Virus record (IMG/VR): IMGVR_UViG_3300006750_000004
Location: 31,726 to 95,725 of that record
Strand: one strand, 5' to 3'
From: a virus
DNA: 64,000 nt
Part shown: one piece after another, positions 4,781 through 45,651 of the stretch
Layout: each line of letters opens with the position of its first letter
Numbering within the stretch: position 1 is the first letter of the stretch
Notes under the pieces: generated by a model
Told to the model about the DNA's origin: nothing
What the model saw: the letters and a program-made list of their open reading frames with translations, nothing else
Databases searched by the model: none
Position numbers and translations under genes: made by a program

Positions 4781-5167
4781 CTATGTGGTGCGGAGAGCTC
4801 TAGATCCTGGAATATCATAGCCATCTTTATCCCAACCATAGACTTGGGCGGCAACATTTACTTCGTCTAGAGTATCGACGGCTGGTTTTAGCAGTTGTTG
4901 TAGTGCATCGGGTAGATTCATTATCCGTATGACTATATCAACAACTTTTCCCTCACTGGAGCGAATAAGTTGCTGCACGGCTACCAAATTCTTCTGTTGC
5001 AACAATCTTTTTATACGTTGAGCCAGCAAGACTGCCCGAAGTTCGGTCGCCTTTTGTTCTAGATCACCTTGTAAGGCATTCCTTTGCGTCTCAAGCCAAT
5101 CATCGTGTCGTGCGAGTAAGTCGGCATCCTCGCCCAACTCATTGATCTGAGTCAGCAAGTGATTCAT
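4781..5167 (-). CDS. Hypothetical helical protein, 128 aa
   Basis: Predominantly alpha-helical, with heptad-like Leu/Gln-rich stretches (residues about 20-70) suggesting a coiled coil. No family recognised. Its start overlaps the end of the upstream zinc-ribbon gene by 29 bp, which suggests coupled translation. Confidence 0.6.
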   Translation of the reverse strand: MNHLLTQINELGEDADLLARHDDWLETQRNALQGDLEQKATELRAVLLAQRIKRLLQQKNLVAVQQLIRSSEGKVVDIVIRIMNLPDALQQLLKPAVDTLDEVNVAAQVYGWDKDGYDIPGSRALRTT

Positions 5168-5507
5168 CGATTTTCCTTACCCAATCTTCTGGTACCCATA
5201 GCCTCTTCCCCAGAATTTCGAGATGATAATGTTTGTGTTTACGGCCACAAATGAGGGCAATTTCATTGTGCCAAGGATGTTCTTCATTTACCAGGAGAAC
5301 AATTTCTCCTTCTTCCAATACTGGGAGAATGATTGAGAGATTAACTGATCCAGTCTCCTGGATCGTAACGGCGTTTTCTGAAGTCAGTACGAAGGGTTTG
5401 TTGCAATGGTAACAATGGTAGGGACCGGCAAGATCAGTCCTAATAAATTCCCAACCTATGTTTCCACCGCAATGTGGGCAGGCAATATATTTATTGTGTG
5501 GTATCAT
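5139..5507 (-). CDS. Zinc-ribbon hypothetical protein, 122 aa
   Basis: The N-terminus carries a four-cysteine zinc ribbon (CPHCGG near residue 10 and CYHCNK near residue 32). A beta-rich segment follows (SLSIILPVLEEGEIVLLVNEEHPWHNEIALICGRKHKHYHLEILGKRLWVPEDWV, quoted here only to mark the barrel-like region at about residues 55-112). It overlaps both neighbouring genes by a few bases. Function unknown. Confidence 0.65.
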   Translation of the reverse strand: MIPHNKYIACPHCGGNIGWEFIRTDLAGPYHCYHCNKPFVLTSENAVTIQETGSVNLSIILPVLEEGEIVLLVNEEHPWHNEIALICGRKHKHYHLEILGKRLWVPEDWVRKIDESLADSDQ

Positions 5508-6207
5508 TTTCGTTCCCCAGCAATCGCCTTAATTCTTCAGGCTGTTGTTGGAGTTCTTTCACCACATTTTTGGCCTGCAGAAGATTTACAGCGAAGCGGG
5601 CCGCGTCATTGCAAGACGTAATAGTCCTGACGTTATTTATATTGCCACTTAGTTTTATTGGCACCTTAACAATGCTACGGATTGTTTCCATAATTTTATT
5701 ATGGATATCAGGATTGGCCTTACTAACCTGAAGTTTCAGTTGAATATCAGTCCTGACATAAGCTGGCGTCCTGACATCCAACAATGCTTCACACAACGCT
5801 TTAATATTATCATCATCACGGCCATTAACTCCTAGCACAAAACGGACTTCTAAGGATTCGGCGAGATGAGTCTTGATGAATTCTGTGAGTGCTTTAGCTT
5901 CGTTGCGGGAATCTATTTTATTCTTTCCGCCAGTCAGTAAGATTTCGAAGCCATCTGCATCTAGGGCATCTGTGGATAGCCCACGCAGTTTGTTCTGACC
6001 GAAAATTTCCCCTTTAGGCCAATCAATAGGTGTGATTAAAAAATATCGTCCACCCGCCCTACCGCGATAGATCTGGGCTTCGGATGCTAGATCTGGGTGC
6101 ACCACTAGTGCTGGTATTTTGTGTTTTGCGGCAAGTTCTGACGCTTCTGCAAGTTCGTTGGCTTGCATGACGTCGATTTCAAGTCGATTGAGGATTGCTC
6201 CGCCCAT
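5491..6207 (-). CDS. DeoC-like TIM-barrel aldolase-family protein
   Basis: 238 aa from the ATG at 6207 (MGGAILNRLEID); the open frame extends upstream but overlaps the NDT-like gene too far. Strands IPALVVHP, FEILLTGG, RFVLGVNGRD, PAYVRTD and VPIKLSGNI follow the deoxyribose-phosphate aldolase layout. The lysine of the second key strand is present (PIKLSG). The position of the DeoC Schiff-base Lys (FIKTS) reads YVRTD, an Arg, so catalysis may differ or be lost. It overlaps the NDT-like gene by 29 bp, which suggests a linked role in deoxyribose or nucleotide metabolism (inference). Confidence 0.55.
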   Translation of the reverse strand: MGGAILNRLEIDVMQANELAEASELAAKHKIPALVVHPDLASEAQIYRGRAGGRYFLITPIDWPKGEIFGQNKLRGLSTDALDADGFEILLTGGKNKIDSRNEAKALTEFIKTHLAESLEVRFVLGVNGRDDDNIKALCEALLDVRTPAYVRTDIQLKLQVSKANPDIHNKIMETIRSIVKVPIKLSGNINNVRTITSCNDAARFAVNLLQAKNVVKELQQQPEELRRLLGNENDTTQ

Positions 6208-6613
6208 ATTTAGTATCCAAGTAATCAAGAGTAAATTGAACGGCTTTATCCTCGTCCCTAAATCGGGAAACAATTGGCCGATTCTGGACTTCTGGTAAGA
6301 AATAGAATGTTTTCTTCTCCCCCATGGTGTCTTGTTCTGTAAGCAAGACGATCTTGACACCAAAAGCTCTGGCTAAACCCAGTTCACAATGTGAACCTTT
6401 ACGAGCCGGGAACACCATAAAGAATACATCGGCGTTCTTAACACCAGTTTCTTCTGCGAGTCCATACTCTGCCAATTCTTCATCGCTATATACTTGTCCG
6501 TGTGTGGTCCAATCATAAGTTATCTCACATCCAGCTTTTTTGAACCTGGCTTGGAGTTCGTTTGCTCTTTTAGCATTTTGTAGGCTTGTGCCTATATAGA
6601 TTCTACCACGCAT
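6179..6613 (-). CDS. Nucleoside 2-deoxyribosyltransferase-like protein
   Basis: 144 aa, typical length for the family. The N-terminal strand is IYIGTSLQNA, followed by a ligand-contact segment (YDWTTHGQVY), the strand ADVFFMVFPA and the motif GSHCELGLARAFG, whose Glu fits the catalytic nucleophile. The family exchanges bases between deoxynucleosides or hydrolyses modified deoxynucleotides. Next to a PurZ-like synthetase and a DeoC-like barrel, this suggests a small deoxynucleotide-processing cassette. Confidence 0.7.
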   Translation of the reverse strand: MRGRIYIGTSLQNAKRANELQARFKKAGCEITYDWTTHGQVYSDEELAEYGLAEETGVKNADVFFMVFPARKGSHCELGLARAFGVKIVLLTEQDTMGEKKTFYFLPEVQNRPIVSRFRDEDKAVQFTLDYLDTKYGRSNPQST

Positions 6614-6675
6614 TTTGCTTTAATACAACGATTGAGAACGGAACGGCTAATATATTTTAGTTATCGCTATTATGA

Positions 6676-7308
6676 TTAAGCCTTCAAGTATTCATAGCCT
6701 GGCCAATCACGCACATCTTGTAATAAGATCTTTATTTTATTGTGCTCAATAGTCTCTCTAGTATATCCAACATTCCAATCAGGACCGATTTCGGGATCTG
6801 GATAAAGATTTAGGCCATCAATATCGACTTCAAGCATAGAACAATTCCCGCACATACAAGGATGGTGTGGACTACCCACAGCACTAGGCATATGAGGATC
6901 TATAAAGTGACCGAGAAGATTATTAACAGCTTGTTTATCTAAAAACAAATAAATGCGGCCTTTTTCATTGGGTCTCAGACCTTTGGTTTTGATAGATGAT
7001 AAATTTTCGGTTGGTGTGATATGGAATGCAAAACCGGTTGTTTGGAATGATTTAGTATCAGTAATCACAATTCGTAATGAATAATACTTCTTGGGTCCGC
7101 CAGAATGATATGGATTTGTTAACTCTTCCGATCCGATTAAATCCCAACCAATTTTGGTTAATTCTTGGCCCAATGCCTTCGTAGGGGGCGACTCAGAATT
7201 AACCCATATGTGGTCATCAAATGAACCCTTGATAAGAACTTTACCAAGATGTCTCTTGATAATTTCTAAAGCATCATTCTTAGATTCACAAATACTTCGT
7301 AGTTTCAT
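6676..7308 (-). CDS. ART/DarT-fold-like protein with capsid-targeting-type leader
   Basis: 210 aa beginning MKLRSICE-S, matching the leader of the MKLRHITE family and ending in an I-x-E site. A putative ADP-ribosyltransferase-type fold follows: GFAFHITPTENLSSIKTKGL (residues about 92-111), GRIYLFLDK, and a late TRETIEHNKIKIL, a layout like KptA/DarT (H...Y...E). A CMCGNC segment may bind metal. In T4 the packaged ADP-ribosyltransferase Alt also carries a cleaved leader, so this may be an injected host-modifying enzyme. The fold is inferred from motifs only. Confidence 0.5.
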   Translation of the reverse strand: MKLRSICESKNDALEIIKRHLGKVLIKGSFDDHIWVNSESPPTKALGQELTKIGWDLIGSEELTNPYHSGGPKKYYSLRIVITDTKSFQTTGFAFHITPTENLSSIKTKGLRPNEKGRIYLFLDKQAVNNLLGHFIDPHMPSAVGSPHHPCMCGNCSMLEVDIDGLNLYPDPEIGPDWNVGYTRETIEHNKIKILLQDVRDWPGYEYLKA

Positions 7309-35686: not shown

Positions 35687-36365
35687 GATTACCATCAAGT
35701 ATGCTAGTGGTGAAACTGTTGCTTTTCAGCTAGAGGGCGATATTTGGTACCTGCGTATTGGGCCTGGTATTCCGTGTCTTTTTGATGAGCGGCTTCGTAA
35801 GCAGGTGGTTCCAAATTTAGATAGCTGGTTTCAATCTAAGACTGGACAACGTTATTCATATCGTACTGTGTGTGATATGGCCGTAGCATTTGCCACTGGC
35901 CTGAATTGCTCTTATCGTGCGGAGGATGTTGTCCGTGTTTGTACCCAAGCGTCTCGTTCTACTGTTGCTCAGGTATTCAGAACAGAATTAGTAAATGATT
36001 ATCGTCGGGCTTACTGGATTGAAATTTTAGATCCCTTGCGACTACCGGAACAAGCACAATCTATTAGGGAGAAGTTCGACTTTCTGCGTAAGAAATTGGG
36101 GGACGATGTCTTTTATAATTACCTGTGTCGTTTATGGAGAGCATGTAGTCTTCAAAATCCGAATGAGACAGCTGTATTTGAACGACTCATTCAACGACTC
36201 GGGCGACAGGCAGCGGACCCGAAGTACCCAGACACAGAAGAATTGGACAAGAAACTTTGTGAGCGTGTGGTCGGTGGGATATTGAGAAGAGACCTACCAC
36301 AATACCGCAATATTCCAGATGATATAATGAGGAACGTTGATGGTATTCAAGCCGGAAGAATATAA
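35685..36365 (+). CDS. Hypothetical protein, 226 aa
   Basis: Start at 35685, where ATG overlaps the CAT start of the divergent glycosyltransferase. Mostly helical with many aromatic and Arg residues; no family recognised. The last 26 bp overlap the first polymerase gene, which suggests coupled expression with replication genes. Confidence 0.6.
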   Translation: MITIKYASGETVAFQLEGDIWYLRIGPGIPCLFDERLRKQVVPNLDSWFQSKTGQRYSYRTVCDMAVAFATGLNCSYRAEDVVRVCTQASRSTVAQVFRTELVNDYRRAYWIEILDPLRLPEQAQSIREKFDFLRKKLGDDVFYNYLCRLWRACSLQNPNETAVFERLIQRLGRQAADPKYPDTEELDKKLCERVVGGILRRDLPQYRNIPDDIMRNVDGIQAGRI

Positions 36366-37767
36366 AGGACCGAAGGAATTCGTCCACCTACATAATCATA
36401 CTGTATTTTCCGCTCTAGATGGAGTGGCTACACCGGAGCAGTATGCTGAGCAGTGTGTAGAACGCGGTTATCCGGCGATGAGTGCTACTGAGCATGGACA
36501 TATGGCATCAGTGCCCGATATGTATCTAGCATTCAAGAAAGCAGGGGTGAAGTATATTCCAGGGTGCGAGATATACTTCAACGATTTTGAACCTGCTAGA
36601 CAAGACTTAGTGGCTAAAGGTATCAAAATCCGGTCACAGGATTGGCGTAAACAAAATCCGGAGATGGCCGCAAGATTATTTCGTAATCGTCATCTCACTG
36701 TTCTTTGCAAGAATAAGACCGGATTCCACAACCTAGTTAAATTGACGACTCAAGCATATGAGACTGGCTTATATGGCATGGGTCGAATGCAATTCAACAG
36801 GGTCTGGTTTGATAAGCTTTGCGAATACAAAGAAGGGCTTATAATCTTATCTGGGTGTCTCAATGGTCCGGTGTGTCATGAACTCCGATACAAAGAATTA
36901 ACTGATCGTGAAGGCAATGTGATTAGTGAGAGACCAAACGCAGACCGAATACGCGACGCTGTGGATTGGGTGAAGAGATTCAAGGCGGAGTTTGGAGAAG
37001 ATTATTATATAGAACTTCAGATGCCAGGTATCCCTGAGGATGATAAAATCTTTAGACTCATGATATCGATTGCTGATCAATACAAAATACCGCTCGCACT
37101 GGCTAATGATTGTCACTATCTTCGTCGTAAAGACTTTATGCTACAGAAGATTATGATGGCTGTGGCTCAGGATACGACGGTGGATTCGCCAGATTTGTTT
37201 CATGTCAATAGTGACGAACAATTTATGAAAACTAGGGCTGAATTGTGGACGCAATTTAAGAATGGCGGTTACGACAAGGGATTGGATGATGGGGTGTTTG
37301 AGGCGATGTGTGATAATACTTTGATGATAGCTGATAAATGTGAGGCGTTTGCTGTCGACACTTCCCCAAAAATCCCGGAAATCCACAATGCTGATGATCA
37401 GTTGAGAAGGTTGGTGGCTGAGAGGTTACAGAGCAGTGGCTTGGTAAAGGAGGATAAGAAGTTCGTGATCGATGGTAAGGAGGTCACTTACGTTCAGCAG
37501 GCCAAGATTGAACTTAATCGATTTATTGACAAAGGGTTTTCCAGTTACTTTATTATCACTAAGGATTTGGTGGGATATGGTAAGTCACGGGGGTGGCCGT
37601 TTAGTCCTCGTGGTAGTGCTGGTGGTTCTTTGGTGTGTTTCCTTTTAGGTATTCATACTTTGGACCCAATGCTGTGGGAATTGTCGTTTGATCGTTTTCT
37701 GTCTCCGAGTCGTGGTGGGTATATGTTGAATGTGAAGATGCCGGAGCCGATTGACCGAAGCACGTGA
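36340..37767 (+). CDS. dnaE: DNA polymerase III alpha, piece 1 (PHP domain and start of palm)
   Basis: 475 aa from ATG 36340 (GAGG upstream). PHP motifs are complete: FVHLHNHT (HxH), ATEHGH, GCEIYF and NDCHYL, so the metal site may be active. The palm begins with FSPRGSAGGSLV, the equivalent of GPGRGSGAGSLV in E. coli DnaE. The protein ends shortly after FDRFLSPSRGG, just before the catalytic aspartates, which are in the next piece at 40025. Pieces 1 and 2 are separated by 2.3 kb, including one minus-strand gene. No intein sequence is visible at this break, so the two chains would have to assemble non-covalently. Confidence 0.85.
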   Translation: MVFKPEEYKGPKEFVHLHNHTVFSALDGVATPEQYAEQCVERGYPAMSATEHGHMASVPDMYLAFKKAGVKYIPGCEIYFNDFEPARQDLVAKGIKIRSQDWRKQNPEMAARLFRNRHLTVLCKNKTGFHNLVKLTTQAYETGLYGMGRMQFNRVWFDKLCEYKEGLIILSGCLNGPVCHELRYKELTDREGNVISERPNADRIRDAVDWVKRFKAEFGEDYYIELQMPGIPEDDKIFRLMISIADQYKIPLALANDCHYLRRKDFMLQKIMMAVAQDTTVDSPDLFHVNSDEQFMKTRAELWTQFKNGGYDKGLDDGVFEAMCDNTLMIADKCEAFAVDTSPKIPEIHNADDQLRRLVAERLQSSGLVKEDKKFVIDGKEVTYVQQAKIELNRFIDKGFSSYFIITKDLVGYGKSRGWPFSPRGSAGGSLVCFLLGIHTLDPMLWELSFDRFLSPSRGGYMLNVKMPEPIDRST

Positions 37768-38551: not shown

Positions 38552-39076
38552 ATGACTGATGAAATAACATCTGTTGAGGAATCACAAGTTGTTGGTGGTG
38601 TTCCACATAAGCCGATTGCTTATAAGGATTCACCCACTGCTCGAGATGAATTACGTCATTCTGTCCACCTCCATCTGATGATTATGAATGGTCCGACGCA
38701 GCAATTGGTTGTGTTTCTGACCAAGACGCTTGATCTCATTCCAGATCCTGGTGAAGAAACTTATGATTTTGCCTCTAACGATGTGGAGATGGGGATATTG
38801 GCTTATAGCATTATTGAGGCTTTGGCCCTTCATGTCCAACGATCTGTTGATGATCGTGCAGCCCGTGCTCAACAGCGTGGCGAGAAGTTCCCGGTGTCTG
38901 TCCGTCAAAAGGGTGATGAGATTTTGGTGGTTGTTGGGAAGACCCGTAGCTCTGGGGATCAAGTGACTTCTAAGAATGCCGTTCTTAAGGCTATTGCCGA
39001 TGCCTTGCATGCTCTTGCTACTGTCACCAAGGCCAAATATCCGGAGATACGGACTGCACGCGGTCAAGTGTTATGA
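38552..39076 (+). CDS. Hypothetical protein, 174 aa
   Basis: Helical protein (residues 30-110) with a C-terminal Ala-rich helix. No family recognised. It overlaps the RNase H-like gene by ATGA and lies between polymerase pieces 1 and 2, so a replication role is possible. Confidence 0.6.
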   Translation: MTDEITSVEESQVVGGVPHKPIAYKDSPTARDELRHSVHLHLMIMNGPTQQLVVFLTKTLDLIPDPGEETYDFASNDVEMGILAYSIIEALALHVQRSVDDRAARAQQRGEKFPVSVRQKGDEILVVVGKTRSSGDQVTSKNAVLKAIADALHALATVTKAKYPEIRTARGQVL

Positions 39077-39558
39077 GAGTCGATCTGGTCTGTGCTGGTG
39101 CTTGCCAAGATGATGGCCTGCCTACTCAGATTGCTGGTTGTGGTATTATTATCAGACTTATTGATGATCACGACCGTGTGCAATCCCGCGAGTTTGGGTG
39201 GGCACTTGGTGGGTCTACCGCTAACCTAGCTGATGTTCAAGCCGTGCGGCTTGCCTTGAGTAGTGTATTACCACAATTCCGTGGTTACCCAACTATTCTG
39301 TATGTGAATAGTAATTATGTGTTTAATCTTTTGGAAAAGGAGAATAAGCACACATTCAAGGCTACTTCGAAGAAAAACAAATCAGAGATCGAAGAGATGC
39401 GGCGATGGTTCGGCTATTATAAGTCTATCTCGATGGTCAAGTATAACCAACACGCTGATATGGATGTAGAGATATTGACCAGAACTATTCAGTTAGCTCA
39501 AGATGCCTTAGAGTCACAACAACATCACGATTCAGGGACCATTGGGCTTGATGCTTAA
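39073..39558 (+). CDS. RNase H-like fold protein, catalytic residues altered
   Basis: 161 aa. Fold features: VDLVCAGAC (first strand with Asp4), GCGIIIRL, EFGWALGGSTANLADVQAVRLAL, TILYVNSNYVFNLL and NQHADMDV. In active RNase HI the third strand reads DS; here it is NSN, so one metal-binding Asp is missing. It may be a reduced-activity or structural relative. ATGA overlap with the upstream gene. Confidence 0.6.
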   Translation: MRVDLVCAGACQDDGLPTQIAGCGIIIRLIDDHDRVQSREFGWALGGSTANLADVQAVRLALSSVLPQFRGYPTILYVNSNYVFNLLEKENKHTFKATSKKNKSEIEEMRRWFGYYKSISMVKYNQHADMDVEILTRTIQLAQDALESQQHHDSGTIGLDA

Positions 39559-39572
39559 TGTGTTAAGGCAAT

Positions 39573-40052
39573 ATGTCAATTAGGGACCAGCTACAAAAAA
39601 TCGCCGATACGGGGTCAAAACGCACCGAAGGTATCGATTACGCGAGTATTGCATTACTCTTAGTGAAACCGCCATCTCGTGTTCTTTCTTCACATCGCAT
39701 CAAAAACAAGGCAGAACATACTAAACTTTTGGAAATTGCTTTTAAAAAGCAATGTCTCATTTATTTCGCATCTGTTGCACATCGTGATGGGAAATACTAC
39801 GCTGCCCAGCCATGGATTCTTGATTTGGATTCTATTAATGCTCTGTGTGAGATAGATGATACACCTAAGGTTGAAATTAAGAAAGAAGAGAGAGGCAAGA
39901 AGGCAGAAGATATTGCTCCACTAACCCTTTATTGCCCATATTGCGACCACCCAATAAACAGTACACCAGGCCGCACTCTCCACATAAAGAGTAGACATCC
40001 TGATAAACTCGAGGATTACAAAAAATGGCTGAAGTCACATGGGAAGAAATAA
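39573..40052 (+). CDS. Hypothetical protein with C-terminal C2H2 zinc finger
   Basis: 159 aa. The C-terminal segment LYCPYCDHPINSTPGRTLH...RH matches a C2H2 finger (CxxC, H...H). The N-terminus is helical. The last 28 bp overlap polymerase piece 2, implying coupled expression; it may bind DNA or the polymerase. Confidence 0.65.
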   Translation: MSIRDQLQKIADTGSKRTEGIDYASIALLLVKPPSRVLSSHRIKNKAEHTKLLEIAFKKQCLIYFASVAHRDGKYYAAQPWILDLDSINALCEIDDTPKVEIKKEERGKKAEDIAPLTLYCPYCDHPINSTPGRTLHIKSRHPDKLEDYKKWLKSHGKK

Positions 40053-41998
40053 AGTCTCTCGCACGCGAGGAACTTGACCAGCGTGGCTTGAACGGAGTAT
40101 ATCTCGACCGCTTGGCATTCGAACAGCGGGAAGTCGAGAAACAGGGAGCCACAGCTTATTGGACCAATCTTGTCAATGACGGCAAGAAATTCGCGTCCAA
40201 CCCTAGCCATTTAATGCTTCCCTGGTTATTAGGAATGGTGGATGGCGACCCAATTCCCAACCGTGTAGACGATATGCTCTGCACAGTACGTGCCTCTGAA
40301 GTAGTCAAGTATAAAGATTCCAAAGGCCACGTGCCATCCGATTTCATCAAAGACCCAGATATGCCAGATATCGATCTGGACTGTCTGCCAGAAGCTCGTG
40401 ATCCGATCAAGGAGTATGCCGCCAAGAAATATGGTATGAACATCACTGACGGGTATGGCCCGGTGTGCTCGGTCGGTACATGGCAGACTTATAAGTTGAG
40501 ATCGGCAATTATCGACGTTTGTACTGCTACAGCCAAAGTCGATAAAGCGGAAGCGTATGATCTCACTACCAATCTACCGGATGATGTGGATGATCTTAAA
40601 GATGGCGGCTACTCTAATTGTAAAGGTAGACCCAAGAACCGCGACGGCGAAGAGATCGAATGCAATGTATCCCATAACAGAACCAAATGCCCGGATTGTG
40701 ATTCAGAGGCAACAGACGGGCCGACAATAGGGAAACTCCTCCAAGAACACGAATTGTTACGAAATTTCGCTATAAAGTATCCAGATGTCATAAACTATGC
40801 TGTCCAAATCATCGGCCGAGTCCGGAATATGGGTATGCATGCTGGTGCTCTGATTATTGCGGACCGTACCTTATTTGGAAATATTCCATTAGCTAAGGGT
40901 GGCAAGAAGGATTATTGGGTCAGTATGTGGTCCGAGGGTCGGAATACCCAATTGTCCAAATTTGGATATATCAAGTGGGATATCCTTGGTCTCAAGACCC
41001 TCAAGTACATCTTCGAATGTTGCCGTCTGATTGAACAGAATCGTGGTATTTCGTTTGGCAAGAAGATCGAACTAGAATCGGACCACGGCCAAGAACTCCC
41101 ACCGGCTATGGATGGATGGGATGATATTGATCCAAGTAAGAACAGGGCTGGCCATTATTATGACCCACAGGGTAATAAGCACTATATCGAATTGAATGAT
41201 AAACATGTTCTCAGCTTGGCCAATGACCAGAAGACCGATGGTGTCTTCCAGTTCGACACGGATTTGGCTAAAAGCACTTTGGCGAACGGCGTCCGGAATT
41301 TTGAGGACTTAATGCTGTTTAATGCTATGGGACACCCTGGTCCGATGGCATCGATTCCTGAGGCTGTTGAGAACCGTGACGACATGTATGGGTCGTGGAA
41401 GAAGAAATTACATCCAGATATTCTCAGGGTTCTTGAATCGACGTATGGTGTGATTGTATATCAGGAGCAATTACAGGCTATTTGGCAAATAGTCGCTGGA
41501 TTTACTGCTCCCCAGGCTCAGGAGGCACGGAAAGCTGTTGCTAAGAAGTGGGTCCACAAATTGAAGCCTATTCGTGAGCAGTGGATTGTTGGTGCTACGC
41601 GGGTTCTTGGTGCTCGCGAGGCGGAGATGTGGTGGCCCAAAATGGAGACGTTTGGTAGATATGCATTCAACCGATGCCTTAACAAAGATACACCGCTTGT
41701 TGATGCGATAACCGGAGAATCATTAACAGTCGAAGAATGGTATGAGTCAAACAGATCTCCATCATTACCGTCATATGTTGACGAGGTTGTTGTTGATAAA
41801 TGTGTCGACATTCATTACAGCGGTGAGCTTGAAGTGTTTGAAATTGAATTTGATAATGGGGATAAAGAAACAGTGACTATGGGCCACAAATTTTTGTGTG
41901 GCGATGGAGAATACCATGAAGTGCGTGAAATTATCGAGCAAGGACTGGAAATCGCCGAAGCTTCGGTTGGTCTCTGTGGATCAAAAACCCAGAGTTAG
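40025..41998 (+). CDS. dnaE: DNA polymerase III alpha, piece 2, with N-terminal split intein half
   Basis: 657 aa. Residues about 1-110 are a non-standard lead-in. MPDIDLD supplies the first two catalytic Asp residues and IKWDILGLKTLK the third. DGVFQFDTD, HPGPMAS, VIVYQEQL and MWWPKMETFGRYAFNR complete palm, thumb and finger motifs. A Cys-rich insertion (CKGR...CPDCDSE) lies near residue 220. After FNR, at base 41675, an intein begins with CLNKDTPLVD (block A) and contains VTMGHKFL (block B); 107 intein residues precede the stop. Splicing with the half encoded at 43433 would restore FNR-SHAVSYC, the usual FNKSHSAAY of DnaE. Confidence 0.9.
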   Translation: MAEVTWEEIKSLAREELDQRGLNGVYLDRLAFEQREVEKQGATAYWTNLVNDGKKFASNPSHLMLPWLLGMVDGDPIPNRVDDMLCTVRASEVVKYKDSKGHVPSDFIKDPDMPDIDLDCLPEARDPIKEYAAKKYGMNITDGYGPVCSVGTWQTYKLRSAIIDVCTATAKVDKAEAYDLTTNLPDDVDDLKDGGYSNCKGRPKNRDGEEIECNVSHNRTKCPDCDSEATDGPTIGKLLQEHELLRNFAIKYPDVINYAVQIIGRVRNMGMHAGALIIADRTLFGNIPLAKGGKKDYWVSMWSEGRNTQLSKFGYIKWDILGLKTLKYIFECCRLIEQNRGISFGKKIELESDHGQELPPAMDGWDDIDPSKNRAGHYYDPQGNKHYIELNDKHVLSLANDQKTDGVFQFDTDLAKSTLANGVRNFEDLMLFNAMGHPGPMASIPEAVENRDDMYGSWKKKLHPDILRVLESTYGVIVYQEQLQAIWQIVAGFTAPQAQEARKAVAKKWVHKLKPIREQWIVGATRVLGAREAEMWWPKMETFGRYAFNRCLNKDTPLVDAITGESLTVEEWYESNRSPSLPSYVDEVVVDKCVDIHYSGELEVFEIEFDNGDKETVTMGHKFLCGDGEYHEVREIIEQGLEIAEASVGLCGSKTQS

Positions 41999-43436
41999 AG
42001 ACAGAGTTACAGTTTGTTGTTCTCAATGCAACAATACTTTGTCAGTAGTGTTTCGCGATTTAATAAAGTCTACCAATACTCATTTGTCGATTGGTCTTGA
42101 TGGGTATTATTGTGCATCTTGTTTGAAGACAACGCCTGCATATAAAGAAATGCATCGGAATAACTCTATTAATTCTAAATCTTTAATAATCGCAGGTGCT
42201 TCCGAACGATCTAAAAAGCTGTGGTCTGATGATGAGTATCGTGCCAAGATGGCGGCTAACAGTCTTCATCTTTCTGAATCCAAAGAATTTAAAGAGAAAA
42301 TGTCTCGTGTTATAAGTGAAAAATTCAAAGATCCACAGTACTCAAACAGTGTGAAATCAGCTAGGAAAAAGTATTGGCGTGATCTGGATTATCGATCATC
42401 TAAATCATGGTCTTTGGAGCAGTTTTTAAAAGCCGCTGCTAGAGAACATGGCGACAAATATCAATATCATCTTGTTGACTATAGGAATATTAAAACAAAG
42501 GTTGCTATCGTTTGTGAGAAACATGGAGAATTTTTGCAGCGTCCGAGTCACCATATTTTTTATGGTAACGGATGCCCGCGATGTTCTTTAGAAATTAAAG
42601 TGTCCAAGCCCCAACAAGAAATAGCCGAATGGCTTGAGGGATGTGGATACGATGTTTCTATGAATGATAGAAAGAGGCTCGACGGTCTTGAATTGGATAT
42701 TTTGGTACCTAATCGCAATTTTGCTATAGAGTATCATGGTGGGTTTTGGCATTCTTTTGATGTTGTTGAATCTGCATCTCAAAGAGCTAGGCATTCTCGC
42801 AAGGCTGATGTTGCTATACAAAACAATGTTGTTTTAATGCAGCTTTTTGATGTTGAGTGGGGTGCTAAGAAAGAACTTGTGAAGTCAATGATTTTACACC
42901 GATTGGGTGGATCATCAGAAAGGATTTATGCTAGGAATTGTACAGCTGTTGAATTGGATGGGAAAACTGCAAATCAATTTTGCGATGAAAACCATATTGC
43001 TGGTGGCAGGTATGCTGAATTGTATTATGGCTTAGAAATTGGTGGATCGTTGATTTCTGTTGTTTCATTCAAACAAACCAATGATGGATTTTTTGAAGTC
43101 ATCCGATTTTGTAGCCAAATTGGGGTGTGTGTTGTTGGAGGGTTGTCTAAAATGTTGGCTGCTTCCAGAATTGGTTCATTTATGACATATGCTGACAGAA
43201 GATACTCAACCGCTAATGGGTATCTGGCAGTTGGATTTAAAAAGATTTCTACTACTAAGCCTGGATATTACTATTGGCGAAACAATAAATTGTTTAACAG
43301 GATGAAATTCCAAAAGCATAAGTTAAACAAAATGCTAAATCTTTTTGATGGTAGCCTGACAGAAGCTGAAAATATGTTTATGAATGGATACCGTAGAATC
43401 TGGGACGCTGGCCACTATAAGTTAGTGAAGTCATGA
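41916..43436 (+). CDS. Vsr/EDxHD-type homing endonuclease inside the fractured polymerase gene
   Basis: 506 aa from the ATG at 41916, which has GGAG 6 bp upstream; it overlaps the intein N-half gene by 83 bp in another frame. The N-terminal part has CxxC fingers (CSQC, CASC). A DUF723-like segment follows (HGDKYQYHLVDYRN, CEKHGEF, CPRC). The nuclease core LELDILVPNRNFAIEYHGGFWHS matches the Vsr-like family found with phage split inteins. A C-terminal domain contains NHIAGGRYAELYYGL and YADRRYSTANGYL. Its stop overlaps the next start as ATGA. Base composition is more AT-rich than the polymerase, consistent with mobility. Confidence 0.85.
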   Translation: MKCVKLSSKDWKSPKLRLVSVDQKPRVRDRVTVCCSQCNNTLSVVFRDLIKSTNTHLSIGLDGYYCASCLKTTPAYKEMHRNNSINSKSLIIAGASERSKKLWSDDEYRAKMAANSLHLSESKEFKEKMSRVISEKFKDPQYSNSVKSARKKYWRDLDYRSSKSWSLEQFLKAAAREHGDKYQYHLVDYRNIKTKVAIVCEKHGEFLQRPSHHIFYGNGCPRCSLEIKVSKPQQEIAEWLEGCGYDVSMNDRKRLDGLELDILVPNRNFAIEYHGGFWHSFDVVESASQRARHSRKADVAIQNNVVLMQLFDVEWGAKKELVKSMILHRLGGSSERIYARNCTAVELDGKTANQFCDENHIAGGRYAELYYGLEIGGSLISVVSFKQTNDGFFEVIRFCSQIGVCVVGGLSKMLAASRIGSFMTYADRRYSTANGYLAVGFKKISTTKPGYYYWRNNKLFNRMKFQKHKLNKMLNLFDGSLTEAENMFMNGYRRIWDAGHYKLVKS

Positions 43437-44692
43437 AAATTAAATCTATTCGATCTCTTGGTGTTCAGAAGACTTTCTCTCCAGAAATGGAGAGTGCCCA
43501 ACATAATTATATAACTGGGAATTCTAATGCTGTTCATAAGAATTCGCACGCTGTTTCTTACTGTCTGGTGGCACATAGATGCCTGTGGCTGAAAGCTCAT
43601 TTCGCCCCAGAGTGGTGGGCGGCGGTTATGAGTGATTGTCATCCACTTAAATTGATTCGGTATATGGGTATTGCTAGAGCTGAGAAGTGGGAGGCAACGG
43701 ATATCACTTACCAGGGCACGTACCAACCGGAGGAGAGGGCCACTAGTGTCGTATTCGACACGATTAATGTGCATAATCTCACTACGGACTTTACGGCTAC
43801 TGGTGATAAGGTCAACCAGGGGATGATTGGTATCAAGGGGATCGGGGAGGCTGCGGCTGGGTTGTTTGTTGGTCGTGGTGAGTTCTTGGATATCGACGAT
43901 TTCATTGAGAAGAAAGGTGCTAAGAGCAAGGTGGTGATGGAGCGTTTTATCAAGCTTGGTGCTTTTGGTACTTTGGAAGGTCATGAGAACAGTTATGCCA
44001 CTTGGATGTGGTATCAGTATAAATATTGCAGTGGTAAGGATATCACTCAGTTGCGGAAACAGGTCCGGCAACGGTTGTTGGATGAGGACAAATGGGATGA
44101 AGATGCTGTGGAGGAAGAACGGCAGAGGCAGACGTCTGAATATAAAGCCCAATTCCCCAATCGCCGCAAGATTCCGAATAAGATCCAGAATTGGAAGCCG
44201 AAGCCTGATGATCGGCGTGAGCGAGTGATGGCTTTATATGCTGACAAGTTGTTCTCCCTGGAGGAGACTTTGGAGTTTGAGAAACAATATCTTGGATATT
44301 ATCTGCACTCTCCCTTGGATCTGTATGATATTCAGGGCGATTGTAATATTGAGGCGGCTAAGGAGGTTAGCAAGAATGGTGGTGATCCCAAGTTGGAGGT
44401 GGTGATTACTGATTTGCAATTTGCTGAGACAAAGACAAAGAAGGAGTATGCTAGGCTGATTGTGAGTGATGGGATGCAAAGTGCCTTGATTCTTCTTTTC
44501 AGCAATGAATTGGCGATGCAGGCTGCGAATAGCTTGGTGGTCGGTACTGGTGTTCAGGCATGTGTTGATTATGACGAGATGCGTGGTACTTTTACTATGA
44601 AGAGGAACCAGATCCTTGTCAAACTCCTCCCGAAAAATTGGCGTGAACGTCAAAGAGAAATTGACGGCCTTCCTCTACTTGATGATGCGTGA
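43433..44692 (+). CDS. dnaE: C-terminal split intein half plus DNA polymerase III alpha, piece 3
   Basis: 419 aa. The first 37 residues are the intein C-half (MKIKSIRSLG...QHNYITGN...VHKN); splicing should occur before Ser at base 43544. The penultimate residue is Lys rather than the usual His. The extein starts SHAVSYCLVAHRCLWLKAHF, matching the DnaE fingers. A helix-hairpin-helix (IGIKGIGEAAAG) and an OB-fold-like region (LEVVITDLQFAET...ARLIVSDG) follow. Read together with the 40025 product, these form a contiguous polymerase C-half. Confidence 0.88.
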   Translation: MKIKSIRSLGVQKTFSPEMESAQHNYITGNSNAVHKNSHAVSYCLVAHRCLWLKAHFAPEWWAAVMSDCHPLKLIRYMGIARAEKWEATDITYQGTYQPEERATSVVFDTINVHNLTTDFTATGDKVNQGMIGIKGIGEAAAGLFVGRGEFLDIDDFIEKKGAKSKVVMERFIKLGAFGTLEGHENSYATWMWYQYKYCSGKDITQLRKQVRQRLLDEDKWDEDAVEEERQRQTSEYKAQFPNRRKIPNKIQNWKPKPDDRRERVMALYADKLFSLEETLEFEKQYLGYYLHSPLDLYDIQGDCNIEAAKEVSKNGGDPKLEVVITDLQFAETKTKKEYARLIVSDGMQSALILLFSNELAMQAANSLVVGTGVQACVDYDEMRGTFTMKRNQILVKLLPKNWRERQREIDGLPLLDDA

Positions 44693-44855
44693 CGAGGTGT
44701 CTGTGGGTGTGGTCTGTAAGAAAATTATGGACCTAGACTCAGAGCGTGATGTGCACGACGGTGGGGATGTGACCAAATATGAGTTCACTAATCCTCATTT
44801 GGCGGCGTTGGCGGACGATTATGCGGGTCGTCTTTTAGATGGGTGTTGGGATTGA
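44685..44855 (+). CDS. Hypothetical small protein, 56 aa
   Basis: Begins MRDEVSVGVVCKKIM and overlaps the polymerase stop by 8 bp. Acidic and soluble, with no clear ribosome binding site. No family recognised. Confidence 0.4.
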   Translation: MRDEVSVGVVCKKIMDLDSERDVHDGGDVTKYEFTNPHLAALADDYAGRLLDGCWD

Positions 44856-44919
44856 TCCGCAAACGAGCTGACGAATTCTTTTCGGTATTCGCCTTGGACT
44901 GTGCTACAGGAGGGCAATC

Positions 44920-45468
44920 GTGCAAACCAGTGATAGAACAGGTATTGTTTGCGATCATTGTGGTACTCAGTACAAGAATGATTTTACGTACTATTCATGG
45001 GATTTTCGTCCTGTGTCTGTGATGAATAGTATTCGTCCGGCGTTGAATCAGATATTTCACACCCAGACGGTGTTTTCTTTGGATATCTGCACTTCTTGTT
45101 TTGACAAGTTCAAGAAGGGGATAATTCATAATTATGGGCAATCGATGGATAAGAAGGGTGCATTCACGGTTTGCGAACTTAGTGGGAACAAATTCACTGG
45201 CACATATAATTATTATCATGTGGCAGTCGCTAGCGTGTCTGTCAGGATGACGGGGCAGCCAAATATTTGCACTAAGTGTCAGCACAAGACGTTCGACAAT
45301 GATAAGGTGTGTTCGAAGTGTCAGGGAACGGATTTTATCAGGCCCGCTGTTATTGATCAGCAGGATCGCTTTGTCGAGTTGAACATGTGTGAAGGAGCTA
45401 TGGACATGCTTCGTGAGAAAGCGGAGCAAATGAGAAAGGTTGCGGGGCAGTGGGCGACAACAAGTTGA
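44920..45468 (+). CDS. Zinc-ribbon protein, 182 aa
   Basis: GTG start with a strong AGGAGG. Zinc pairs: CDHCG near residue 11 with CTSC near residue 59, and CTKC...CSKC near residues 117-133. Acidic/basic helical C-terminus. Function unknown; one of many Cys-rich small proteins here. The 207 bp after it hold a promoter-like box and nothing else seen. Confidence 0.65.
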   Translation: MQTSDRTGIVCDHCGTQYKNDFTYYSWDFRPVSVMNSIRPALNQIFHTQTVFSLDICTSCFDKFKKGIIHNYGQSMDKKGAFTVCELSGNKFTGTYNYYHVAVASVSVRMTGQPNICTKCQHKTFDNDKVCSKCQGTDFIRPAVIDQQDRFVELNMCEGAMDMLREKAEQMRKVAGQWATTS

Positions 45469-45651
45469 GAGAGAATTTTAGACGCGATGCTCCGGAAGGT
45501 ACTTATAATTCGGTTTGAATTTTCGGAGTTTAAGCCCATGCCGTCGTAATTGGGTAGCACGTCCTGAAACACATCGTATCGATCACCGCAATTGCTGACC
45601 GTGACCAATCATTGAGTACAAATAACAATTAGGGCTCAAGTTGGTCTTAGC

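What the first reader, a model, noticed from the sequence alone, without database searches (positions are those of the whole stretch)
40025..44692. Fractured DNA polymerase III alpha: split intein flanking a free-standing homing endonuclease
Polymerase piece 2 ends in a 107-residue intein N-half beginning CLNKDTPLV. Piece 3 begins with a 37-residue C-half. Between them is a separate Vsr-type endonuclease gene with its own start and an ATGA stop-start overlap. Splicing restores FNR-SHAVSYC exactly. This is the 'fractured gene' arrangement reported for metagenomic phage split inteins, here in a C-family replicase. The site lies about four residues from that of the cyanobacterial DnaE split intein (AEY-CFNKSHS) and is not the same.
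Basis: partly seen in the sequence, partly recalled or inferred. Interest (0 to 1): 0.85.

Follow-up and report, generated by a model that had tools for sequence, protein, structure and literature searches.

The report
Phage replicase broken by split intein
A phage DNA-copying enzyme is encoded in separate genes because a mobile split intein and its DNA-cutting gene sit inside it, and the two intein halves, which should splice the enzyme back together, look like relatives of the well-known split intein of cyanobacteria.

Summary
In this 95.7-kb phage contig the catalytic part of a DnaE-type polymerase III alpha is interrupted by 1869 bp (41675-43543): a 107-residue intein N-half, a 506-codon EDxHD (Vsr-like) homing endonuclease gene, and a 37-residue intein C-half. 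Twelve related phages carry the same site uninterrupted (YAFN[RKL]|SH). The same arrangement occurs in at least five other viral lineages, with catalytic residues conserved. The cassette is scattered among empty alleles on the polymerase tree, and one contig pair shows a recent conversion tract, so it behaves as a homing element. By profile search the intein family is closest to the cyanobacterial DnaE split inteins (72 bits, against 33 for the next family), although those sit four residues away. The other break in the polymerase (piece 1/piece 2) is an ancestral two-gene split without an intein. 'Fractured genes' of this kind were described in 2009, so this is a new member; the new points are the replicase host, the apparent kinship with cyanobacterial DnaE inteins, and a natural series running from cis, through overprinted and fractured, to possibly dispersed halves. 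Splicing itself is inferred, not shown.

The parts
36337..37767 (+). Piece 1: PHP domain and N-terminal part of polymerase III alpha, a separate gene
   Evidence: Pfam PHP 1.7e-34 and DNA_pol3_alpha 2.1e-20; the same gene split is present in intein-less relatives L010-L012
40025..41674 (+). Piece 2 N-extein: palm and finger part of polymerase III alpha (550 residues)
   Evidence: Pfam finger domain 1e-29 and DNA_pol3_alpha 5e-17; 74-79% identical to L010/L011
41675..41998 (+). Split intein N-half, 107 residues plus stop (Cys1; block B TMGH)
   Evidence: intein_Nterm match from residue 551; family alignment A3 with invariant C1, T68, H71
41916..43436 (+). EDxHD (Vsr-like) homing endonuclease gene, 506 codons; ATG 41916 after GGAG, alternative GTG 41898; +1 frame relative to N-half; C-terminal Mom-like domain
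   Evidence: phrog_559 5.5e-84, phrog_3339 4.9e-79; PDB 3r3p 2e-4; fold match Mom 2.7e-6; same +1 overlap in L041, L042, L043, L046
43433..43436 (+). ATGA stop/start overlap between endonuclease and C-half genes
   Evidence: sequence; same ATGA overlap in L041
43433..43543 (+). Split intein C-half, 37 residues ending HKN
   Evidence: family alignment; HKN/HRN in 7 of 8 aligned family members, HAN in L065
43544..44692 (+). Piece 3 C-extein: rest of polymerase III alpha, starting SHAVSYC
   Evidence: HHH_6 4.9e-7; 63-82% identical to empty alleles L010-L012
41675..43543 (+). Whole mobile insert (1869 bp)
   Evidence: absent in 12 related loci; GC 33-42% against 47% in flanking exteins

Best explanation
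The insert is a mobile split intein with its own homing endonuclease at the FN[KR]|SH motif of a phage C-family replicase. Three products are made: N-extein with N-half, endonuclease, and C-half with C-extein. The two intein halves associate and excise themselves (Cys1, block B TxxH, block F His, terminal Asn, Ser+1), joining AFNR to SHAVSYC and restoring the uninterrupted allele's sequence. The endonuclease cuts intein-less alleles during co-infection and repair copies the whole cassette in. Piece 1 would join non-covalently, because that split is ancestral. The intein family is most likely a specific relative of the cyanobacterial DnaE split inteins. Shown: anatomy, exact empty site, conserved family, mobility pattern, lineage ranking. 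Inferred: splicing, cutting, non-covalent joining of piece 1.
For: Exact empty site in L010-L013 and eight more loci. Same arrangement in L041, L042, L043/44/45, L046 and, with decayed endonuclease, L048. Invariant C1, T68, H71, H131 and terminal N across eight inteins only 40-59% identical to the window's. Between window and L041/L042/L043 synonymous change is at or near saturation while dN is 0.3-0.6 in N-half, endonuclease and C-half. Profile versus PDB: cyanobacterial DnaE 3e-19, SspDnaB 4e-7, NrdJ-1 0.05, gp41-1 not found. Polymerase tree puts the window beside empty L010 (100/98), with at least five forced changes of state, while the intein tree joins the window with L043: mobility. L043/L044: 15 mismatches in the 95 bp before the intein, then 2 within about 1.9 kb of intein plus endonuclease. 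Endonuclease matches I-Bth0305I. No intron RNA family at the site.
Against: No splicing or cutting assay. The penultimate residue is Lys instead of His, though the cyanobacterial DnaE inteins also lack it (Ser/Ala). The window's own intein_Nterm score is below the curated cut-off (20.4 against 24.5 bits). Kinship with cyanobacterial DnaE inteins is 98/98 in one tree but only 85/68-74 in a broader one, with about 145-150 columns and some long branches.
Confidence: 0.88

Rival explanations
1. The intein halves are inactive relics; polymerase pieces 1, 2 and 3 work as a non-covalent complex, as in phage replicases broken by free-standing endonucleases alone.
For: Aeromonas plasmid CP053880 (L031) and Klebsiella phage-plasmids (L032) have DnaE broken near the same place by HNH/NUMOD4 genes, with no intein C-half; piece 1 is already separate in the relatives L010-L012; Lys replaces the penultimate His.
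Against: All splicing residues and both half-lengths are conserved across divergent members with saturated synonymous sites; the family stays exactly junctional, which a relic need not.
Confidence: 0.07
2. One continuous intein-endonuclease-polymerase is made by two ribosomal frameshifts (+1 then -1).
For: The endonuclease frame is +1 to the N-half and the C-half returns to frame 0; L059 and TerL-type inteins L096-L099 keep the host frame open across an out-of-frame endonuclease.
Against: 56 host-frame stops across the window's endonuclease, near the 63 expected; the endonuclease and C-half have their own ATG, with GGAG before 41916; L042 and L048 have C-halves in a different frame from the N-half.
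Confidence: 0.03
3. The breaks are sequencing or assembly errors of an ordinary intein.
For: Metagenomic contig.
Against: Identical arrangement in a contig from another dataset and in divergent family members.
Confidence: 0.01

Closest known systems
Fractured genes with split inteins (Dassa et al. 2009, NAR 37:2560, doi 10.1093/nar/gkp095; full text not held, content from memory)
   Same: Enzyme gene broken by split intein halves with an endonuclease gene between them; Vsr-related endonuclease; phage-like source
   Different: Host gene here is a C-family replicase alpha subunit (I could not check whether DnaE is among the enzyme types in that paper); intein is DnaE-lineage, not gp41-1/NrdJ-1-like; endonuclease gene starts inside the N-half in another frame
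Cyanobacterial DnaE split inteins (Npu, Ssp)
   Same: Best profile match, same host protein, similar half lengths (107/37 against about 102-123/36), no penultimate His
   Different: Insertion four residues downstream (AEY|CFN against AFNR|SH); Ser+1 instead of Cys+1; halves adjacent and endonuclease retained
Cis inteins at the same site in Rhodococcus phages (Dorin, Trina, NiceHouse, Grayson, Weasels2, Peregrin) and gut phage MT835601
   Same: Same FNK|SH junction
   Different: Single-chain mini-inteins without endonuclease; fall outside the split clade
EDxHD homing endonuclease I-Bth0305I (PDB 3r3p)
   Same: Nuclease domain and motif
   Different: Extra N-terminal zinc-binding-like region and a C-terminal Mom/GNAT-fold domain
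Aes123 PolB1 split intein (PMC11923092)
   Same: Split intein in a phage replicative polymerase
   Different: Family-B polymerase of T4-like phages; cysteine-less intein

Membership tests
Fractured gene | Enzyme gene broken in two by split intein halves | tested here: met
Fractured gene | Endonuclease gene between the halves | tested here: met
Fractured gene | Precise empty allele exists | tested here: met
Fractured gene | Protein trans-splicing | not testable with these tools
   no assay
Cyanobacterial DnaE split intein | Sequence profile of the intein | tested here: met
   7qil 3.2e-19, Npu 5e-18, next family 3.7e-7
Cyanobacterial DnaE split intein | Insertion site AEY|CFN and Cys+1 | tested here: not met
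   AFNR|SH, Ser+1
Cyanobacterial DnaE split intein | Common ancestry excluding other inteins | tested here: inconclusive
   98/98; 85/68-74
Cyanobacterial DnaE split intein | Halves encoded far apart | tested here: not met
   halves adjacent here; only L047 is separated, by inversion
gp41-1/NrdJ-1 split inteins | Intein sequence kinship | tested here: not met
   gp41-1 not found, NrdJ-1 E 0.046
EDxHD homing endonuclease | Catalytic motif and fold | tested here: met
   E259, D261, E272, H279 among invariant columns; 3r3p match
EDxHD homing endonuclease | Cleavage of the intein-less site | not testable with these tools
   no assay; homing pattern seen indirectly

The most novel reading that the evidence does not exclude
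The cyanobacterial DnaE split intein descends from, or shares a split ancestor with, phage-borne fractured DnaE inteins. Endonuclease genes read in another frame inside the intein first overprint it (L059), then stop codons fracture it (window), then the endonuclease decays (L048) and rearrangement separates the halves (L047), giving the dispersed state seen in cyanobacteria.
Probability: 0.4. Interest if true: 0.82.

Novelty: new member of a known kind. Interest (0 to 1): 0.6.

Why it matters
How the cyanobacterial DnaE intein, the founding split intein and a standard protein-engineering tool, came to be split is an old question. A phage family in the same protein, with the same split point and the closest sequence profile, still holding its endonuclease and found in several stages of breakage, makes that question testable. 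It also adds a new set of natural split inteins.

Tried and rejected
Ordinary cis intein with a sequencing error: rejected by the second contig and the family. Group I or II intron: no Rfam match in 39000-45500. Intein at the piece 1/piece 2 break: none; that split is shared by intein-less relatives. Aeromonas and Klebsiella phage-plasmid DnaE splits as the same element: rejected, since their C-pieces begin with native DnaE sequence and the tail of the N-piece is a native loop also present in intact SSU5 DnaE. Bacterial genomes: only three hits in MAGs, two of them read as cis mini-inteins, L095 a long open frame. A second contig with the L047 inversion: none found, so that case rests on one assembly. 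Full text of Dassa 2009: not held.

Full report
What is there. The window is part of a 95,725-bp IMG/VR virus record. Polymerase III alpha is encoded in three genes: piece 1 (36337-37767, PHP domain and N-terminal part), piece 2 (40025-41998) and piece 3 (43433-44692). Between residue 550 of piece 2 and residue 38 of piece 3 lies an insert of 1869 bp, 41675-43543, with GC 33-42% against 47% in the flanking exteins. It holds a 107-residue intein N-half, a 506-codon endonuclease gene and a 37-residue intein C-half.

Empty site. Relatives L010-L013 (50-82% identical in piece 3) have one uninterrupted gene in which piece-2 residue 550 is followed directly by piece-3 residue 38, reading YAFN[RK]SH; eight more viral loci are also empty, two of them reading FNLSH. 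In E. coli alpha the matching motif is GFNKSH, about residues 755-760 of the aligned PDB chain 2hnh. Piece 1 is separate from piece 2 in L010-L012 too, so that split is old and has nothing to do with the intein.

Not an artefact. A contig from another dataset (L002) is 99.98% identical over 11.6 kb with the same stops. Divergent contigs L041, L042, L043-L045 and L046 have the same arrangement, and L048 has it with a decayed endonuclease. In L041, L042, L043 and L046 the endonuclease frame begins inside the N-half, always in the +1 frame; in the window an ATG at 41916 preceded by GGAG is the likely start.

Intein. Alignment of eight members shows invariant Cys1, block B Thr and His, block F His and terminal Asn. 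The last residues are HKN or HRN in seven of the eight; the eighth has HAN. Synonymous sites are at or near saturation between members while dN stays at 0.3-0.6. The family profile matches cyanobacterial DnaE split inteins at up to 3e-19 (72 bits); next are SspDnaB 3.7e-7 (33 bits), RecA inteins near 7e-5, NrdJ-1 0.046; gp41-1 is absent. Trees group phage split inteins with the cyanobacterial ones at 98/98 in a first panel and 85/68-74 in a broader one. Cis inteins at the same phage site fall outside.

Endonuclease. The profile of nine relatives matches the catalytic domain of I-Bth0305I (3r3p, E 2e-4), with E259, D261, E272 and H279 invariant. An AlphaFold model (mean pLDDT 81, pTM 0.53) has as its best fold match the phage Mu DNA-modification protein Mom (8bv8, E 2.7e-6), a GNAT-fold protein; the other top matches are also GNAT acetyltransferases. 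That this domain is the C-terminal one is inferred from the nuclease match lying at residues 229-318 and from Pfam Mom matching the C-terminal half (2e-26) of the gene between the halves of L065. What a Mom-like domain does in a homing endonuclease is unknown; DNA binding or protective modification are guesses.

Mobility. On the polymerase tree the window is sister to empty L010 (100/98), and starred branches force at least five changes for the fractured state, while the inteins of the window and L043 are sisters (98/83; 99/82 and 98/79). L043 and L044 differ at 15 sites in the 95 bp before the intein but at only 2 sites from 5055 to 6965, across intein and endonuclease. This is what homing with co-conversion leaves.

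Series of states. At or within a few residues of this site, phage DnaE genes show: empty; cis mini-inteins (Rhodococcus phages, L053, L055, L056); cis with HNH-like inserts (L052, L078, L079) or an in-frame LAGLIDADG-like insert (L050), both judged by eye from the sequence; cis with a LAGLIDADG gene in the +1 frame while the polymerase frame stays open for about 270 codons (L059-L061; 0 stops against 11 expected); fractured with EDxHD (window family) or with LAGLIDADG (L049); fractured with decayed endonuclease (L048); and halves on opposite strands after an inversion of several genes (L047, one contig only). The order of these states is inference, not shown.

Mechanism and limits. The most likely mechanism is protein trans-splicing that restores the replicase, with the endonuclease spreading the cassette. 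Splicing and cutting are inferred. A non-covalent polymerase with dead intein halves is the main rival. A hidden, out-of-frame HNH endonuclease in a phage methylase has been published (PMC11855218), so overprinting as such is not new. Fractured genes were described in 2009 and I could not read that paper here; hence 'new member of a known kind'.

Noticed in passing
L059 4228-5052 (also L060, L061, identical over the stretch): LAGLIDADG endonuclease gene in the +1 frame inside a DnaE intein whose own frame stays open throughout (0 stops, 11 expected).
   Followed up: partly
L097 5119-5667, L099 2958-3506, L096 677-1237: Inteins in what look like terminase large-subunit genes carry an HNH-like endonuclease in the +1 frame with the host frame open (0 stops against 7-11 expected).
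   Followed up: partly
L047 3522-5354 (+) and 8547-9797 (-): Fractured DnaE whose C-half gene lies in an inverted block of several genes, no endonuclease; resembles the dispersed cyanobacterial state. One contig only.
   Followed up: partly
window 41916-43436, C-terminal about 200 residues: Homing endonuclease carries a Mom-like (GNAT-fold) domain; L065 3683-5020 matches Pfam Mom at 2e-26.
   Followed up: partly
L031 838-5182 and L032 1919-6170: DnaE of Aeromonas and Klebsiella phage-plasmids is broken by HNH/NUMOD4 genes inside an intein-block-B-like loop that is intact in phage SSU5.
   Followed up: partly
L065 203-2600: Second break in the same polymerase, just before the catalytic PDxDxD motif, with its own EDxHD endonuclease and an intein-like tail lacking Cys1.
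   Followed up: partly
record of L048 (IMGVR 3300023202_000383, 256 kb): Seven intein N-terminal matches in one phage record.
   Followed up: no
L051 2496-7462: Fractured DnaE intein one residue upstream (FN|CSH) with Cys+1 and a different endonuclease-like gene; joined the cyanobacterial inteins in one tree (long branch), not in the broader one.
   Followed up: partly
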